IMG/VR virus record: IMGVR_UViG_3300037882_000936
Location: 1-36,646 of that record
DNA from: a virus
Length of the DNA: 36,646 bases
Direction: 5' to 3' (one strand)
Shown: positions 2,859 through 35,448 of the stretch, in pieces
How the letters are laid out: every line of letters starts with the position of its first letter
Position numbering within the stretch: position 1 is the stretch's first letter
Made by a program: the position numbers and the translations under genes
The notes under the pieces: model-generated
What the model saw: only the letters and a program-made list of their open reading frames with translations
Database searches by the model: none
Told to the model about the DNA's origin: nothing

Positions 2859-4922
2859 ATGCCCTTTCCGGGCCAATATCGAAAATCTCAATGGTTCGCA
2901 TTGTCAGATATTGTAGAAGACGCACGAAAAGGTTATGAAGCCGCGCAGTCGTACTGGTCCCCCATATACGAACCAGCTCGCGAGGATTTGCGTTTTCTGT
3001 CGGATGAGCCCGGCGCTCAATGGGATGACAAAGCATTTGCCCTAAGAAAGCGCCGCAACCGCCCCGCGCTAACAATCGATCAGCTCACTCAATTCGTTAA
3101 TCAGGTGTCAAACGACATCCGTATGAATACGCCGAGTATTAACGTAATCCCCCATTCAGGTGGTGCAGATTTAGAAACCGCTGAAATCTATCAAGGATTG
3201 ATTAGAGACATCGAGCAAACCTGCAACGCAGATGATGCTTATGACTATGCGGTGAATTCGGCGATTAAATGCTCTATCGGGTTTTTCCGTATTGACCATA
3301 GATACAAAGATGATCTGAGCTTCGAGCAAGAGCTTTACATAGAGCGCGTTGTCAATCCTCTCTCGGTTTACCTCGATCCCAACAGCGTTGCCCCTGATGG
3401 ATCAGATGCTATGTGCGCGTATGTTCTAGAGCAGATCAGCCTTGACGAATTCAAAAGCAGATATCCAGACGCAGACCCGGTTTCTTTTGACGATGGCAAA
3501 AAGATTGTACTGGAGAAGAAAGAAGACCAGATAACGATTTGCGAATATTTCAAGGTAGAAGAAGAAACTGTACAAATTGCCCAGCTTGCTGATGGTTCTA
3601 TCGTAGAAATGCAGGACGGGATAGAAGCTGTATCGGTTCGTGACGGCAAGCGCAGGATTGTTCGCCGCTATCATCTTTCCGGTGCTGACACGCTGAAGGA
3701 AACAACATTCCCCGGTAAATATATCCCGCTCATTCCTGTTTACGGTGAAGAGGCGTGGATTGATGGCGAGCGTAGAATTCATTCACTCATTCGCAAGGCA
3801 AAAGACCCGCAGCGCAGGTATAATATCTGGGCCTCCACTGAGGCTGAATTGCTGCTTAAGGCTCCAAAGGCCACGATTATCGCGGTCGGCGGTACGACTG
3901 AGAACTACGCCGCTGATTACAAGGACCCTGACAATGCAATCGTCCTGCGGTACGACCAGACGGATTCAAAGGGCAATCAAGCACCGCCCCCACAGCTTAA
4001 CCCCGGCCCGCAAATTCCAGCCGGGATCGTCAACGCAATGCAACGCGCAGCGGATGACATTAAATCCACGATGGGGTTGTACAACGCGTTCATCGGCCAG
4101 CGTGGCAATGAGACTTCAGGCGTTGCTATTCAGCAGCGCAAGATGGAAGGCGACCGAGCGATTTATCACTTTGGTGATAACCTTGTGCGCTCGATCACTC
4201 AAGCGGGTAGGCTTTTGGTGTCCGCTATTCCAGACATTCATTCTAAGCCTGAGATCGTGCGTGTAATAGGCAAAGAGGACGCAAGCGAAGAGGTCGGGAT
4301 TAACGGCGCGATGGCTGAAGGTCAGGAGCGCCCGTTCTATCTCACTCAAGGTCAATACAATGTCAGGGTAACGACAGGTGCGAGCTTCGCAACGATGCGC
4401 GAAGAGGCAGCAGACTTCTTCCAGCAGGTCATCCAGTCACAGCCGCAGCTTATGGAAGTTGCGGGCGACCTGATGTTTAAATACATGGACTTCCCCGGTG
4501 CGCAGGCCTTGTCAGAGCGCATGAAGAAAATAATCCCGCCGCATATTCTTGATGAAGAGGGCGAGAAAGACCCTGCCACAGCAGCGCTAGAGCAAGAAAA
4601 CCAGCAGCTCAAAATGGCCATGCAACAGATGCAAACCGAAATGCAGGCTACACAGCAGCAGCTTGATAACAAGCAGGGCGAGCTACAAATCAAGGCGCAG
4701 TCCGAGGTTGTTAAAGCGCAAGGAGATGAGAATAAGAACGCAATCGAGATTGCCAAGCTTCAATTGGAAGAATTTAAGGTCAGAACAGAGATGGAAATTA
4801 AACAGGCGGAACTCGCCCTTAAGAACCGTGAGCTGGACCTCAAAGAACAGGAGGCGCTTTTTAGCGCATCCCAGCAGCTTAACGCTGCTCAAACAGAGAT
4901 ACCGCAATCAAGCGGTTACTAA
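2859..4922 (+). CDS. Portal protein, P22-like
   Basis: A 687-residue portal, long like the P22 family. The N-terminal part (ALSDIVEDARKGYEAAQSYW, then FVNQVSNDIRMNTPSINVIP near 85-105) and the central section with ERRIHSLIRKAKDPQRRYN and NETSGVAIQQRKMEGDRAIY are typical of these portals. The C-terminal 110 residues or so are rich in Gln, Glu and Lys and would form a coil comparable to the P22 barrel. The dodecamer forms the unique vertex, the DNA channel and the terminase dock. No Shine-Dalgarno is seen before the ATG at 2859, and the upstream inverted repeat may matter. The gene is followed closely by scaffold and coat, supporting the assignment. Confidence 0.93.
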   Translation: MPFPGQYRKSQWFALSDIVEDARKGYEAAQSYWSPIYEPAREDLRFLSDEPGAQWDDKAFALRKRRNRPALTIDQLTQFVNQVSNDIRMNTPSINVIPHSGGADLETAEIYQGLIRDIEQTCNADDAYDYAVNSAIKCSIGFFRIDHRYKDDLSFEQELYIERVVNPLSVYLDPNSVAPDGSDAMCAYVLEQISLDEFKSRYPDADPVSFDDGKKIVLEKKEDQITICEYFKVEEETVQIAQLADGSIVEMQDGIEAVSVRDGKRRIVRRYHLSGADTLKETTFPGKYIPLIPVYGEEAWIDGERRIHSLIRKAKDPQRRYNIWASTEAELLLKAPKATIIAVGGTTENYAADYKDPDNAIVLRYDQTDSKGNQAPPPQLNPGPQIPAGIVNAMQRAADDIKSTMGLYNAFIGQRGNETSGVAIQQRKMEGDRAIYHFGDNLVRSITQAGRLLVSAIPDIHSKPEIVRVIGKEDASEEVGINGAMAEGQERPFYLTQGQYNVRVTTGASFATMREEAADFFQQVIQSQPQLMEVAGDLMFKYMDFPGAQALSERMKKIIPPHILDEEGEKDPATAALEQENQQLKMAMQQMQTEMQATQQQLDNKQGELQIKAQSEVVKAQGDENKNAIEIAKLQLEEFKVRTEMEIKQAELALKNRELDLKEQEALFSASQQLNAAQTEIPQSSGY

Positions 4923-30752: not shown

Positions 30753-31019
30753 TCAGAATGGTATACTATCATCTGAAAAATCCACTGGGATGTTTGGCGT
30801 TCCTTTTACGGCCTGCCGCGCCTCGTCAAAGTTAGGCTTGAACTTAGGCTTAATCGACCCAGCCAGCATGGTGCCGGATGTTCCTTTAATCCAAAAAGCT
30901 ACGTCCTTTTCTTCGCCGTTAATCAGGGCTTTTCCTGTCCAGTCAGGCCCTTTTTCTGTGCGCTTTTCCTTAACCTTATAGACGACGATATCGCCTTCTT
31001 TTTGCTGGTATCCTGACAT
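30753..31019 (-). CDS. SSB-like protein with acidic tip (DDSIPF)
   Basis: An 88-residue protein with a β-type body (IVVYKVKEKRTEKGPDWTGK, ALINGEEKDVAFWIKGTSGT) somewhat like small DUF736-type domains. Residues 83-88 (DDSIPF) reproduce the acidic C-terminal tip that single-strand DNA-binding proteins use to recruit partners. It directly follows ERF: its ATG shares a base with the ERF stop. A single-strand-binding role is likely, though the body is shorter than a standard SSB OB fold. Confidence 0.7.
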   Translation of the reverse strand: MSGYQQKEGDIVVYKVKEKRTEKGPDWTGKALINGEEKDVAFWIKGTSGTMLAGSIKPKFKPNFDEARQAVKGTPNIPVDFSDDSIPF

Positions 31020-31657
31020 TACATTCTCTCCATTGCTGATCTGTCTAATTCACGGTTGCTTAATTCTGTAGATCGGTTTTCGGTTTGCTGCTGAATCAGA
31101 TCAAGCTCGCCCTGTGTTGCCCCCAATTCCTTAAGCCGTTTCCATTGGTATCTGCCAACCGCCTTAACGCTTTCCGGGTCTTCGGCGTTATTAATAAGTT
31201 CCATGGCGTCTTTCCATTCCTTGTGGATTGCCTTGGTGGATTTATCAATCGGGTTGAAATTGCCCTTGGATGCCTTGTCATGGTCGTTTGTCGCATCTGC
31301 GTCTTTGGTATCGTCAATGCAGAACAGGCCATTCAGCGCATATTTTCGGGCATAGCTGGACGTTGCGCCTGTGATTTGGGCATCATCCGATTTTTTCTTG
31401 TCCAGAGCCTCACGCGCAAAGGCCGAAACCTCAAGCTTGCCCTTGCCGTCTAATAGCGTAGCCGTGGCCTTCACATAGTACCTATCCCCAGTCTGGACTA
31501 TATCATCTGATAGCAATAAGACCACGCCCTCTGGAAGCAAGGGCTTCACAGCTTCAAGAATATCCTCACATGAGCGATATTTGTAGCCGCCAAACTCATT
31601 CATCTGCCCCTTGGGGACGCGAAGTTCACGCTGTATTTTGCTCAATATATTAATCAT
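31019..31657 (-). CDS. erf: ERF-family single-strand annealing protein
   Basis: A 212-residue recombinase of the ERF family. The signature GATSSYARKYALNGLFCIDD is at 97-116, followed by KDAD and an acidic Lys-containing linker. The N-terminal domain (PKGQMNEFGGYKYRSCEDIL, KPLLPEGVVLLLSDD) matches as well. ERF proteins anneal complementary single strands, circularise phage DNA and make concatemers for packaging. It partners with the SSB-like protein and nucleases downstream. No exonuclease of the λ Exo kind is visible. Confidence 0.92.
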   Translation of the reverse strand: MINILSKIQRELRVPKGQMNEFGGYKYRSCEDILEAVKPLLPEGVVLLLSDDIVQTGDRYYVKATATLLDGKGKLEVSAFAREALDKKKSDDAQITGATSSYARKYALNGLFCIDDTKDADATNDHDKASKGNFNPIDKSTKAIHKEWKDAMELINNAEDPESVKAVGRYQWKRLKELGATQGELDLIQQQTENRSTELSNRELDRSAMERM

Positions 31658-32242: not shown

Positions 32243-32340
32243 TTTTTGTGCAAAACTTGCAAAAACGCTTGAGGGTTGGAAAAGGTTCCGTTATATTTTA
32301 TCGGCTGGTAGGGCTTTGCCCTCGCAAGCTTCTGTCTCTC

Positions 32341-32380
32341 TCCCCAGTGAGACAAAGGCCAGTCATTCTTCTACTGGGGA
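32341..32380 (+). promoter_or_regulatory. Hairpin masking the HNH-AP2 ribosome site
   Basis: TCCCCAGT (32341-32348) is perfectly complementary to ACTGGGGA (32373-32380), an eight-base stem with a 24-base loop. The 3' arm contains GGGGA, the only ribosome-binding site for the ATG at 32386. A second hairpin (GGGC-TTT-GCCC) lies at about 32310-32320. Translation of the nuclease may be held low until the stem opens. Confidence 0.55.
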
Positions 32381-32385
32381 AATAC

Positions 32386-32865
32386 ATGAAAAAAATACCA
32401 ATAAATAAAGGACTTTTTTGTCTCGTAGACGATGAGGACTACGAATTTCTGTCACAATGGAAGTGGACCTCTAATGCCAAGGGGTATGTAGTAAGGACTC
32501 ATAGGGAGAAAATGGGGCGCGGAACTTACACCGAGCATATAATAATGCACCGGGTCATTAATAACACCCCAGATGGCATGGTCACAGACCATATTAACGG
32601 CGATAGGCTTGATAACCGCAGGTGTAATTTAAGAAGCTGCACCGTATCCCAAAATAATTGTAACAGAATTGCTATAAAGGGGAAAACAAGCTCTTACAAG
32701 GGGGTTAGTCTATGTAAAAGAAGCAATAAATGGAGAGCCCAAATTTTAGGAGCAGGCAGCATTGGATATTATGAAACTGAAATTGAGGCCGCTAAAAAAT
32801 ACGACGAATACGCCCTTAAGCAATACGGAGAATATGCAAAGTTAAACTTTGGGGGTGGTTTTTGA
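32386..32865 (+). CDS. HNH homing endonuclease with AP2 domain
   Basis: A 159-residue protein. The HNH core is at about 66-85 (VTDHINGDRLDNRRCNLRSC, with H69, N71 and N81). An AP2-type DNA-binding domain covers about 102-157: SSYKGVSLCKRSNKWRAQI, then GYYETEIEAAKKYDEYALKQ and EYAKLNF. HNH-AP2 proteins are typical mobile homing nucleases of phages. The start at 32386 follows GGGGA by five bases. The larger reading frame from 32248 has no sensible N terminus. The stop overlaps the next start by one base, so the element sits neatly between two genes and does not obviously interrupt one. Confidence 0.88.
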   Translation: MKKIPINKGLFCLVDDEDYEFLSQWKWTSNAKGYVVRTHREKMGRGTYTEHIIMHRVINNTPDGMVTDHINGDRLDNRRCNLRSCTVSQNNCNRIAIKGKTSSYKGVSLCKRSNKWRAQILGAGSIGYYETEIEAAKKYDEYALKQYGEYAKLNFGGGF

Positions 32866-33563
32866 TGGATTGGTACCCTTGGTATTTCCAAATCTATGAA
32901 TCTGACACAATGCACCTCAATCCTTATCAGGACGGGTGCTACCGCCGTCTTATAGACCACTACATGAAAACCCGATGTGCGTTGCCAGACAATGACGCGG
33001 CGCTTGCTCGGATCGTTGGCGATAGCGAGGCCAATTGGGTGGCTATAGCCTCGCCATTAATTAGACCTTTTTTTAAAGCTAAAGATGGGCTTTTGTACCT
33101 CCACAGATGCGAAATTGTTCTCGCTCAACAGGACGAAAGACGCAAAAGCTTGTCGGAGAGCGGAAAAAACGGCGCAAAGAAGAGATGGAATAAAGTCAAT
33201 GAAATCAATGAAACCGATGGCCACCCTATAGCCACCCCAATGGGTACCCTTAAGCCAAACGATAGCACAGGACAGGACAGGACAGGACATATAACCCCTA
33301 TAGTCCCCCTTACAGGGGGCGCAACCAAAGTTTCCAAAAGGGGCTGTAGAATACCAGACGATTGGGATTGCAGCTCTGATTTGGGAAAGTGGGCCATGAC
33401 ACAGGGCTTGAGCAGGCCGGAGGTTCTTCACGAGATCGAGCAATTCACAGACCACTACCGAACGGCCACCGGAAAAGGCTCCACTGCGTTGGACTGGGAT
33501 TTAAAATTTAGAACATGGATAAGGAACACGGTAAAATGGCAAAGTTCAAAGACGAGCAGATAA
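32865..33563 (+). CDS. DUF1376-type replication protein
   Basis: A 232-residue protein. Residues 1-95 form the DUF1376 domain: YPWYFQIYESDTMHLNPYQD, GCYRRLIDHYMKTRCALPDN and LARIVG. Lys-rich GKNGAKKRWNK near 105-115 is the usual end of that domain. A Thr/Gly/Pro-rich linker follows, and the C-terminal part (DWDLKFRTWIRNTVKWQSS) is typical of phage replisome organisers, which bind the origin and load host helicase. The linker region contains pentamer repeats and a hairpin, as expected of an origin inside the initiator gene. The start is the ATG at 32865, after GGGGGTGG. Confidence 0.85.
   Translation: MDWYPWYFQIYESDTMHLNPYQDGCYRRLIDHYMKTRCALPDNDAALARIVGDSEANWVAIASPLIRPFFKAKDGLLYLHRCEIVLAQQDERRKSLSESGKNGAKKRWNKVNEINETDGHPIATPMGTLKPNDSTGQDRTGHITPIVPLTGGATKVSKRGCRIPDDWDCSSDLGKWAMTQGLSRPEVLHEIEQFTDHYRTATGKGSTALDWDLKFRTWIRNTVKWQSSKTSR
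33266..33290 (+). repeat. Tandem pentamers (GACAG), candidate origin iterons
   Basis: One CACAG, three perfect GACAG units and one GACAT lie in tandem inside the DUF1376 gene, encoding a Thr-Gly-Gln-Asp-Arg-rich linker. A strong hairpin begins 15 bases downstream. Repeats inside an initiator gene are the usual place for a phage origin. The units have the same five-base, G-ending form as the tracts at 34490-35448. Confidence 0.6.
33305..33319. other. Strong hairpin in the replication gene
   Basis: CCCCCT, loop TAC, AGGGGG: a perfect six-pair GC-rich stem. With the neighbouring iterons it resembles a small origin: initiator sites plus a stem for strand opening or priming. Confidence 0.5.
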
Positions 33564-33841: not shown

Positions 33842-34489
33842 ATGTCTAAATCAAACGTATCATCACTACCAAAGCAAACCGTACAGATCGCCGCGCCCAA
33901 ACTTCGCACGGCAGAATTCAAGCTGATCGGTGTGACGCCTTTTGTTCAGCTTCGATTTTCGCAAAAATCCATGAATGCAATGATGGACAAAATGAAGGCC
34001 GGGTCTCAATCCAAGGGGAAGAAGGTCCGTGAGGCGAGAGATTTCAATGATGACTTCATTCAGGCGCAGCATATTTCAACGGAAGGCTGGAACGGCGTTC
34101 CTGCTGGAGCTTTTAGGGCTGGTATGATTTCCGCTTGCAGGCTTGTTGGTTTTAAAATGACCCTTGCCAAGCTTTCTGTTTTTATCGAGGCTGATGGTTT
34201 CGACAAGGTGGACGGGGTGCCTCTGGTTAAAATTGAAGGAACGCCGGAGCCTAATACGATGGCTGTCAGAAATGCAACAGGGGTTGCGGATATCAGATGC
34301 CGCCCGATGTGGAAAGAGTGGTCGATTAAACTTCGTGTGAAATACGATGAAGACCAGTTTTCCCTACAAGATGTTTCAAACCTTCTCTCACGTGTCGGCC
34401 AGCAAGTCGGCATCGGTGAAGGCCGCAATGACTCAAGAATGAGCGCAGGCCTTGGTTGGGGCTGCTTCAAGCTTGATGAAGGTAAATAA
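33842..34489 (+). CDS. Conserved phage protein of unknown function (215 aa)
   Basis: A β-rich protein of a family I recognise by pattern only: FKLIGVTPFVQLRFSQKS near 26-43, GVPAGAFRAGM at 85-95, IRCRPMW at 151-157, VGIGEGRND at 189-197 and GLGWGCF at 203-209. The spaced Gly-Ile-Gly-Glu-x-Arg and Arg-x-Arg-Pro motifs suggest conserved binding residues rather than an enzyme. GAGG lies upstream of the start. It is directly followed by the first G-anchored pentamer tract, and with the gene at 34784 forms a two-gene, two-tract cassette. A nucleic-acid-binding role for the tract is my hypothesis. Confidence 0.7.
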   Translation: MSKSNVSSLPKQTVQIAAPKLRTAEFKLIGVTPFVQLRFSQKSMNAMMDKMKAGSQSKGKKVREARDFNDDFIQAQHISTEGWNGVPAGAFRAGMISACRLVGFKMTLAKLSVFIEADGFDKVDGVPLVKIEGTPEPNTMAVRNATGVADIRCRPMWKEWSIKLRVKYDEDQFSLQDVSNLLSRVGQQVGIGEGRNDSRMSAGLGWGCFKLDEGK

Positions 34490-34733
34490 AGTTTACGTGA
34501 CTGGTCGCCGCTCGTAGTTGCAAGGCTGGGCGCGGCTAGGCACGGTAAGGCAGGCTTGTTACGGGTGACCCGTATCGGTCTGGTATGTTTGTCTCGGCAG
34601 CCAAGTCTAGTCCAGCAGCGGCGGGGCTAGGAATGACCTGGCAGGTAAGGTCCGTCTGGTCCCGGCGTGTAGTCGTCTGGCCCGGTTGGTATGGCAGGAG
34701 TGTCCTGTCATGGTGAGTCGACGCAAGGCACGT
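34490..34733 (+). repeat. G-anchored pentamer tract 1 (non-coding)
   Basis: A GC-rich intergenic stretch built of degenerate five-base units ending in G. Seven consecutive units obey the rule at 34520-34554 (GCAAG, GCTGG, GCGCG and so on), eleven at 34596-34650, and eight of nine at 34650-34694, with the last two runs sharing a G. The usual unit is (G/T)CNNG. It also holds a 15-base palindrome, TACGGGT-G-ACCCGTA (34560-34574), and a nine-pair hairpin with loop GTG at 34691-34711. Both strands lack a plausible gene. Confidence 0.85.
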
Positions 34734-34760
34734 CATGGAGCGAATAGGCGCGGTTAATTT
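34734..34760 (+). promoter_or_regulatory. Boundary element at the end of tract 1
   Basis: CATGG, three bases, GAATA, then GGCGCGGT and TAATTT. The same parts, in the same order with 1-2 base insertions, end tract 2 at 35419-35448. It lies before the AAGGAG ribosome site of the next gene. It could be a promoter-like, processing or binding element. Confidence 0.6.
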
Positions 34761-34783
34761 GTTTTTAACAGAAGGAGAAAACT

Positions 34784-35230
34784 ATGAGTATCAAAGAAGA
34801 ACTTGAAATATTGTGTAAACAAAACAACGGCTTCCTGCGTCCGCAAGAGGTTGTTGAATTTGCAAGGAACCCTGATACGGCTTTGCACACTCAGTTTGAG
34901 TGGGACGACGGCGCTGCGGCTGAAAAATACCGCCTAGCTCAAGCAAGGGCTATTATCCGGGTTGCTGTTATCGTCAATCCTGATAATCAAGAAAGCGTCC
35001 GGGCTTATGTCAGCTTGACAGACGAGCGTGATGAAAATGGTGGTTACAGGGCATTAGCGGAAGTTCTCAGTGATGAAATTCTGAAAGATAAAATGCTTTC
35101 TGATGCTCTAAAGGATCTGCAAACTTTCCAGCGTAAATATAACAGATTGAAAGACATAGCAGAAATTGGTATTATTCTTGATGCGATTGATGGTGTTATG
35201 CCTTCAGCCGCAGAAAGCAAAGTTGCTTAA
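34784..35230 (+). CDS. Conserved phage protein of unknown function (148 aa)
   Basis: A protein of a family seen in many phages, known by LRPQEVVEFARNP at 18-30, FEWDDGAAAEKYRLAQAR at 38-55 and RAYVSL at 73-78, ending in a helical part with QTFQRKYNRLKDIAEIG. No catalytic motif can be named. A very good ribosome site (AAGGAG, 8 bases upstream) supports the start. It lies between two pentamer tracts that share the same end element, so the gene and the tracts probably form one unit with the 33842 gene. Function unknown. Confidence 0.75.
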   Translation: MSIKEELEILCKQNNGFLRPQEVVEFARNPDTALHTQFEWDDGAAAEKYRLAQARAIIRVAVIVNPDNQESVRAYVSLTDERDENGGYRALAEVLSDEILKDKMLSDALKDLQTFQRKYNRLKDIAEIGIILDAIDGVMPSAAESKVA

Positions 35231-35231
35231 C

Positions 35232-35418
35232 GGCAGGCTAGTCCGGACACGTCAAGGTGTGACTGGGCGATGCTAGGCAGGCGAGACGGGACGAGTCGCG
35301 GCGAGTCGCGGATTGTCACGGTCGGGCAAGGCAGGCTACGCATGTCCAGGCAAGTCAAGTAAGGGCGCGGCGAGCATAGGCCAGGCAGGCAAGGAAAGTC
35401 GGGTTAAGGGCGGAAACG
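35232..35418 (+). repeat. G-anchored pentamer tract 2 (non-coding)
   Basis: 33 five-base units cover 35232-35394 in three registers: 9 of 10 end in G at 35232-35281, 12 of 12 at 35281-35340 and 11 of 11 at 35340-35394. Each register change is a slip of one base in which a G is shared. Position 2 of the unit is C in 25 of 33. It includes an exact tandem decamer, CGAGTCGCGG twice at 35292-35311. No credible ORF occupies it. After 35394 the pattern fades into the boundary element. Confidence 0.88.
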
Positions 35419-35448
35419 CATGGCGAGAATATGGCGCGGTATTAATTT
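35419..35448 (+). promoter_or_regulatory. Boundary element at the end of tract 2
   Basis: CATGG, three bases, GAATA, T, GGCGCGGT, AT, TAATTT. It is the counterpart of 34734-34760 and ends directly at the ATG of the HTH gene, where no Shine-Dalgarno is visible. Confidence 0.6.

What the first reader, a model, noticed from the sequence alone, without database searches (positions are those of the whole stretch)
34490..35418. Two non-coding tracts made of degenerate 5-base units ending in G
The sequence shows directly that the two intergenic tracts after the genes at 33842 and 34784 are not ordinary GC-rich DNA. Every fifth base is G over long runs: 7 of 7 at 34520-34554, 11 of 11 at 34596-34650, 8 of 9 at 34650-34694, then 9 of 10, 12 of 12 and 11 of 11 at 35232-35394. 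The unit is close to (G/T)CNNG; position 2 is C in 25 of 33 units of tract 2. The units are not copies of each other, and register shifts are always one base with a shared G. Selection therefore appears to keep spacing and the G, not sequence. A five-base step is half a helical turn, so a protein filament or array reading alternate faces of DNA, or an RNA with regular contacts, is possible. I know no described element like this.
Basis: partly seen in the sequence, partly recalled or inferred. Interest (0 to 1): 0.92.

Follow-up and report, generated by a model that had tools for sequence, protein, structure and literature searches.

The report
Phage guide-RNA arrays (VIPR system)
The two strange five-base tracts are guide-RNA arrays of a phage-encoded VIPR system, a CRISPR-like weapon described in a 2026 preprint that reads only two bases out of every five; related arrays decode to genes of other phages, which independently supports the published code.

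Summary
Both tracts (34496-34756, 35235-35427) fit a period-5 model G-(G/T)-C-N-N far better than any of 1000 shuffles. The same tract lies beside homologues of the upstream gene almost wherever I looked, nearly always on that gene's strand. A DNA-only pattern scan recovered the same gene family.

The explanation is a VIPR system (PMC13142463, preprint, 2026). ORF 33842-34489 is a Vipr: a minimal RAMP/Csm3-like protein whose profile matches the solved SUSP1 Vipr. The tracts are vrRNA arrays: GGY is scaffold, the NN pairs are the guide. ORF 34784-35230 is the likely accessory protein.

I tested the published 1-nt-skip code on this clade. Exact 8-NN matches in one target phage group: 0/9/1/0 guides for skips 0/1/2/3, none for shuffled or reversed guides. 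Targets are a Sak4-like annealing gene and a serine integrase, skip base at codon wobble. The window's own guides gave no certain target; the best candidate is a capsid gene (19 of 20 bases).

Verdict: new member of a recently described kind. Expression untested.

The parts
33842..34489 (+). vipr: 215-aa minimal RAMP protein (PHROG 4652), predicted guide-RNA-binding subunit
   Evidence: AlphaFold2 pLDDT 82; Csm3/Cas7 folds, Foldseek E 3e-5, Z 11.4, rmsd 3.5 over 149 residues; profile matches PDB 36pp_D 'SUSP1 Vipr protein', E 2e-4
34496..34756 (+). Tract 1: vrRNA array of GGY-NN pentamers, five modules
   Evidence: Period-5 model gain 44 nats against -47 (sd 7) in shuffles; same tract in homologous loci
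34499..34552 (+). T1 module 1 and its GGCA junction; NN = TG GC TC GT AA TG GC TA AC AA
   Evidence: Unit parse
34553..34599 (+). T1 module 2, irregular units, and its GGCA junction
   Evidence: Unit parse
34600..34643 (+). T1 module 3 and its GGCA junction; NN = AA TA CA GC GG TA AT CT
   Evidence: Unit parse
34644..34696 (+). T1 module 4 and its GGCA junction; NN = AA CC TG CC GT GT CT CC, then an irregular end
   Evidence: Unit parse
34697..34756 (+). T1 module 5; last units may be an AT-rich tail instead of guide
   Evidence: Unit parse; similar end in tract 2 and L001
34784..35230 (+). Candidate vap (VIPR accessory protein), PHROG 15946, 148 aa; N-terminal domain weakly like winged helices plus a long helix
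   Evidence: Found in 85 of 147 Vipr loci; model pLDDT 92.6; Z 5-6 only, so the fold match is inconclusive
35147..35175 (+). Promoter-like site upstream of tract 2 (TTGAAA-17-TATTAT, extended -10); could be chance
   Evidence: Consensus scan, 4 sites found against 2.4 expected
35235..35427 (+). Tract 2: vrRNA array of GGY-NN pentamers, four modules
   Evidence: Period-5 model gain 52 nats against -33 (sd 7) in shuffles
35236..35279 (+). T2 module 1 and its GGCA junction; NN = TA CG AC AA GT TG GA TA
   Evidence: Unit parse
35280..35333 (+). T2 module 2 and its GGCA junction; NN = GA GG GA GC GA GC TT AC CG AA; best candidate target an HK97-type capsid gene
   Evidence: Unit parse; 19 of 20 bases, wobble-aligned, in L405 and L434; not significant alone
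35334..35387 (+). T2 module 3 and its GGCA junction; NN = TA AT CA AA AA AG GC GA TA CA
   Evidence: Unit parse; no convincing target
35388..35427 (+). T2 module 4, degenerate
   Evidence: Unit parse

Best explanation
The tracts are two vrRNA arrays of a phage-encoded VIPR system. Shown here by sequence and computation: the gene before them encodes a Vipr-family RAMP protein; the tracts are tandem GGY-NN pentamers on that gene's strand, cut into guides of about 8-12 units by GGCA|GGC junctions; sister arrays in this clade decode, with one skipped base between NN pairs, to genes of other phages. Inferred from the published system: the tracts are transcribed, Vipr subunits assemble on the RNA with GGY as the grip, the NN pairs base-pair with double-stranded DNA (the skipped base usually at codon wobble), and binding silences genes of competing phages or prophages, helped by the neighbouring accessory protein.
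For: Protein: RAMP fold and match to the solved SUSP1 Vipr. Linkage: tract beside the gene in 52 of 54 viral loci by the model (one more with an AGCNN form, one cut off), 15 of 16 genome loci and all 7 annotated phages examined; strand agrees in 143 of 145 loci; a DNA-only scan for GGCNN runs finds the gene in 88 of 117 tract-bearing contigs. Anatomy as published: GGY/NN pentamers, small accessory gene, long intergenic arrays. Code: a guide shared by two distant systems hits 106 contigs, all in one Sak4-like gene with the skip at wobble; 719 other guides give exact 8-NN matches for 0/9/1/0 guides at skip 0/1/2/3 and 0 for shuffled or reversed guides; decoded peptides.
Against: No expression data. 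The window's own guides have no certain target. The sequence match to SUSP1 Vipr covers only about 50 C-terminal residues. No structured 3' tail as in SUSP1 was found. The target contigs are homologous to each other, and some matching guides are variants of one another, so independent events are fewer than the counts.
Confidence: 0.95

Rival explanations
1. A DNA site: an array of half-turn-spaced contacts for a DNA-binding or annealing protein (Erf/RecT-type filament, partition or replication site).
For: Five bases is about half a helical turn; the window encodes an Erf annealing protein at 31019-31657; RecT-type proteins are thought to use about five bases per subunit (own knowledge).
Against: The tract follows the Vipr gene, and always its strand, in phages with different recombination genes (Cy-LDV1 has Bet, UmaThurman RecE); the gene is RAMP-fold; NN bases decode to phage genes only at 1-nt skip, which a DNA site would not predict.
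Confidence: 0.02
2. RNA landing site for a TRAP-like ring protein (triplets separated by two free bases, about 11 per ring), used for regulation in cis.
For: Same five-base step, triplet plus two free bases; modules of 8-12 units.
Against: The co-occurring protein has a RAMP fold, not a TRAP fold; unit number varies between modules; free bases would carry no information, yet they match targets.
Confidence: 0.01
3. A VIPR system that is decaying in this phage: the arrays are relics with weakened GGY scaffold and no live target.
For: GGY fit is looser than in many relatives; some units of tract 1 are irregular; no certain target.
Against: The Vipr frame is intact and keeps the family's invariant residues; the first G is still present in 87% of units; L001, with a Vipr 85% identical, shows the same relaxed consensus with entirely different guides, as expected of guide turnover instead of decay.
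Confidence: 0.06

Closest known systems
VIPR systems (Vipr + vrRNA + Vap), PMC13142463
   Same: Phage-encoded minimal RAMP protein, small accessory gene, long non-coding arrays of GGY/NN pentamers, 1-nt-skip decoding with wobble alignment (shown for sister arrays), targets in other phages
   Different: Modules follow one another with only GGCA|GGC between them, instead of separate RNAs each with a structured tail as in SUSP1; the preprint mentions staggered overlapping arrays, which may be the same. The last one or two units before GGCA often do not match the target. Type could not be assigned because the supplement was not available.
Type III CRISPR Csm3 / Cas7 (RAMP backbone subunits)
   Same: Protein fold; periodic contact of protein subunits with guide RNA (own knowledge, cited also in PMC13142463)
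   Different: No cas genes among ten neighbouring ORFs tested, no repeat-spacer array, five-base step with only two of five bases read
TRAP (trp RNA-binding attenuation protein) sites
   Same: Five-base repeat of a conserved triplet and two free bases, bound by repeated subunits (own knowledge)
   Different: Unrelated protein fold; the free bases of TRAP sites carry no guide information

Membership tests
VIPR | Vipr: single minimal RAMP protein related to SUSP1 Vipr | tested here: met
   RAMP fold, Z 11.4 to Csm3; profile hit to 36pp_D, E 2e-4
VIPR | Intergenic arrays of tandem GGY/NN pentamers beside vipr | tested here: met
VIPR | Accessory gene (vap) beside vipr | tested here: met
   PHROG 15946 in 85 of 147 Vipr loci; identity with a named vap1-6 not tested
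VIPR | Guides recognise DNA by the 1-nt skip rule | tested here: met
   Met for sister arrays of the clade; for the window's own guides inconclusive
VIPR | Carried by phages or proviruses | tested here: met
   Virus record with head, replication and recombination genes
VIPR | Invariable structured 3' tail on vrRNAs | tested here: inconclusive
   Common GGCAGG ends but no clear fold in window modules
VIPR | vrRNAs expressed and bound to Vipr | not testable with these tools
   Needs RNA sequencing and pull-down
CRISPR-Cas (type III) | cas gene cluster around the RAMP gene | tested here: not met
   Ten neighbouring ORFs searched in Pfam and PHROGs, no Cas protein
TRAP-regulated leader | Bound by a TRAP-fold ring protein | tested here: not met
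   The linked protein is RAMP-fold

The most novel reading that the evidence does not exclude
This clade uses tail-less, head-to-tail guides: one transcript carries several guides of about 8-10 NN, each ended by one or two unread pentamers and a GGCA|GGC phase reset that closes one guide and opens the next, so several targeting complexes arise without the structured tail known from SUSP1. Distantly related VIPR phages have converged on the Sak4 annealing gene and the integrase of one phage group.
Probability: 0.35. Interest if true: 0.65.

Novelty: new member of a known kind. Interest (0 to 1): 0.58.

Why it matters
In the library searched VIPR is known from one preprint, with experiments on few systems. 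Here a clade picked out from raw sequence by periodicity alone obeys the same unusual code, which is outside support for the 1-nt-skip rule. It also names natural targets (a Sak4-like annealing gene and a serine integrase), shows distant VIPR phages sharing a guide, and gives a DNA-only signature (GGCNN runs with GGCAGG junctions) that finds such systems without gene annotation and explains some odd annotated 'proteins' in phages.

Tried and rejected
Half-turn DNA filament and TRAP ring: see rivals. Coding: the tracts lie between the ORFs taken here as genes and contain TAG stops at NN-G (read from the sequence). Two-tier G-quadruplex: the second base is T or A in about 40% of the window's units while C at position 3 is kept, which a quadruplex does not need. 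Known RNA family: none in Rfam for the locus, and only a tRNA in 16 other loci; no hammerhead ribozyme. Literature searches for pentanucleotide repeats or phage RAMPs led nowhere until the PDB hit gave the name. Target searches that failed: all guides against about 3 Mb of VIPR-phage DNA, all skips at chance; guides of four mycobacteriophages and two Gordonia phages against thirteen actinophage stretches; window guides against the window itself; exact 20-base window guides in viral contigs; T2m3 16-base pattern, 27 scattered hits. T2m2 16-base pattern, 51 hits in many proteins; other protein families have as many hits as the capsid, so it stays a candidate. A working note put pattern loci with Vipr at 91 of 120; recounted it is 88 of the 117 with a scored tract. 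Structure search of the Vap candidate gave only weak matches.

Full report
OBSERVATION. The two tracts were re-read and measured. Lag-5 autocorrelation of G is z 5.4 and 5.1 against dinucleotide-preserving shuffles, recurring at 10 and 15, and C shows the same. A cyclic hidden Markov model fitted to both tracts clearly improves on a memoryless model only at period 5 (or 10), by about 105 nats, with emissions G 0.87, G/T 0.55/0.28, C 0.63, N, N. With a fixed pooled model the tracts score +44 and +52 nats against -47 and -33 (sd 7) for 1000 shuffles each, and every positive-scoring 250-base stretch of the 36.6-kb window overlaps the two tracts.

CONSERVATION. The window is an IMG/VR virus record. 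The gene before tract 1 (33842-34489) belongs to PHROG 4652 and the gene between the tracts (34784-35230) to PHROG 15946, both of unknown function there. Scanning viral contigs with the first protein gave 54 loci; 52 carry a period-5 tract by the model, always on the gene's strand. Of the two others, L048 has a tract with AGC in place of GGC and L054 stops at the contig end just after the gene. The tract is also present in Cyanophage Cy-LDV1, Gordonia phages ODay and UmaThurman and Mycobacterium phages Donkeykong, Quico, Brocalys and Saal, and in 15 of 16 loci from bacterial genome assemblies. The reverse test used no gene: the pattern GGCNN x9 + GGC in viral contigs gave 120 contigs. With an iterated profile of the protein, 88 of the 117 that carry a scored tract encode it, and over all loci the strand agrees in 143 of 145; in one of the two exceptions the stronger tract is on the gene's strand. 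Some of the 29 without the gene are cut off at a contig end.

ARCHITECTURE. In 576 distinct junctions the consensus is GGCA followed by GGC, with free NN on both sides. Junctions divide tracts into modules of mostly 39, 44, 49, 54 or 59 bases, i.e. 5n+4. Many tracts also end in GGCAGG.

IDENTITY. AlphaFold2 gave a good model of the 215-aa protein (pLDDT 82). Its nearest solved folds are Csm3/Cas7 RAMP chains of CRISPR complexes (Foldseek E 3e-5; Z 11.4, rmsd 3.5, 149 residues). A profile search of PDB sequences hit 36pp_D, 'SUSP1 Vipr protein', E 2e-4, over about 50 C-terminal residues. This led to PMC13142463 (bioRxiv, April/June 2026; found, read): VIPR systems consist of a minimal phage RAMP protein (Vipr), an accessory protein, and vrRNAs of 9-16 GGY/NN pentamers whose NN pairs recognise double-stranded DNA with one skipped base between pairs. 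The anatomy of the window fits. PHROG 15946 occurs in 85 of 147 Vipr loci, and in one locus without a Vipr in view; it is the likely Vap. Its predicted model (pLDDT 92.6) has an N-terminal domain that resembles winged helices only weakly (Z 5-6), in line with the preprint's statement that some Vaps are predicted DNA-binding proteins.

TEST OF THE CODE IN THIS CLADE. NN strings were extracted as guides (730 distinct). Distant systems share guides: L035 and L083/L074 share 18 bases exactly, offset by one unit and with different GGY letters, although the L083 Vipr is only about 28% identical to members of the window's family. Written as a 1-nt-skip pattern, this guide matched 106 viral contigs. 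All 106 lie at one site of one gene, a Sak4-like annealing protein (PF13479, PHROG 124), motif TVVQIAHTD, with the skipped base at the codon's third position (in two records another frame was longer, one of them apparently through a frameshift). The extra first unit of L035, AT, matches the preceding Met codon, giving 20 of 20. For comparison, two 20-base window patterns matched nothing, and two 16-base ones matched 51 and 27 contigs scattered over unrelated proteins. Using the 106 contigs as a target set and leaving out the guide that fetched them, exact 8-NN matches occur for 0, 9, 1 and 0 of 719 guides at skips 0, 1, 2 and 3, and for none of the shuffled or reversed guides at skip 1. The matching guides come from several arrays and read, in frame, other parts of the same Sak4 gene (GYGKGYVA, IKRFDSPE, YDRYVIKL, DVGFNKK, NKKISRAV) and of a serine integrase (TEEGLDQN, NTTTSMGR; PHROG 95). 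The 106 contigs are homologous, so their number is not a count of independent events; the number of guides is the fairer measure, and some of those are variants of one another. In several of these guides the last one or two units before GGCA do not match, which suggests that they belong to the end signal (inference). Within homologous modules NN bases differ less (2.8% and 7.3%) than the third scaffold base (13.5%); that set was chosen for alike NN, so the contrast is overstated.

THE WINDOW'S OWN GUIDES. None matches the window itself notably better at skip 1 than at other skips. T2m2 (35280-35329) has its best match, 19 of 20 bases and wobble-aligned, in an HK97-type capsid gene (L405, L434; 18 of 20 in L428, L440; PF05065), but its 16-base core hits many proteins, so this is a candidate only. 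The window phage's own coat protein is in another family (PHROG 283). T2m3 gave nothing convincing.

MECHANISM. Shown: gene family, tract anatomy, gene-tract linkage, and the decoding of sister arrays. Inferred from the preprint: transcription, assembly of Vipr on the RNA, DNA binding and silencing of competing phages. Likelihood that the tracts are VIPR guide arrays: about 0.95.

LIMITS.

Noticed in passing
L058:4438-4824 (Mycobacterium phage Donkeykong gene 48): A vrRNA tract (4456-4802) is annotated as a protein-coding gene; in related phages (Quico, Brocalys, Saal) the same place is left without a gene. Likely a spurious gene call.
   Followed up: partly
L058, L276, L277, L278 tracts: Four mycobacteriophages share one guide almost unchanged (NN core ATTCATGCTTxGATTGGC) while other modules differ; its target was not found.
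   Followed up: partly
L048:3593-4560: A homologous locus whose arrays use AGC-NN instead of GGC-NN, with AGCA|GGC-like junctions; a scaffold variant missed by the GGC model.
   Followed up: partly
window 34730-34770 and 35410-35446; L001:3840-3880: Both window tracts and an L001 tract end in a similar AT-rich stretch (GGCRCGGTWW..TAATTT) instead of GGCAGG; it could be a tail of the last guide or a leader of the next gene.
   Followed up: no
window 32248-32865: HNH endonuclease with an AP2 domain (homing-endonuclease-like) next to a DUF1376/DnaT-like primosomal gene (32862-33563), just upstream of the VIPR locus.
   Followed up: no
L060-L179 loci without a Vipr, e.g. L063, L080, L098, L147, L155: Some contigs with strong GGCNN tracts gave no or only distant Vipr match in the stretch fetched; they may hold more diverged Vipr types or be cut off.
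   Followed up: no
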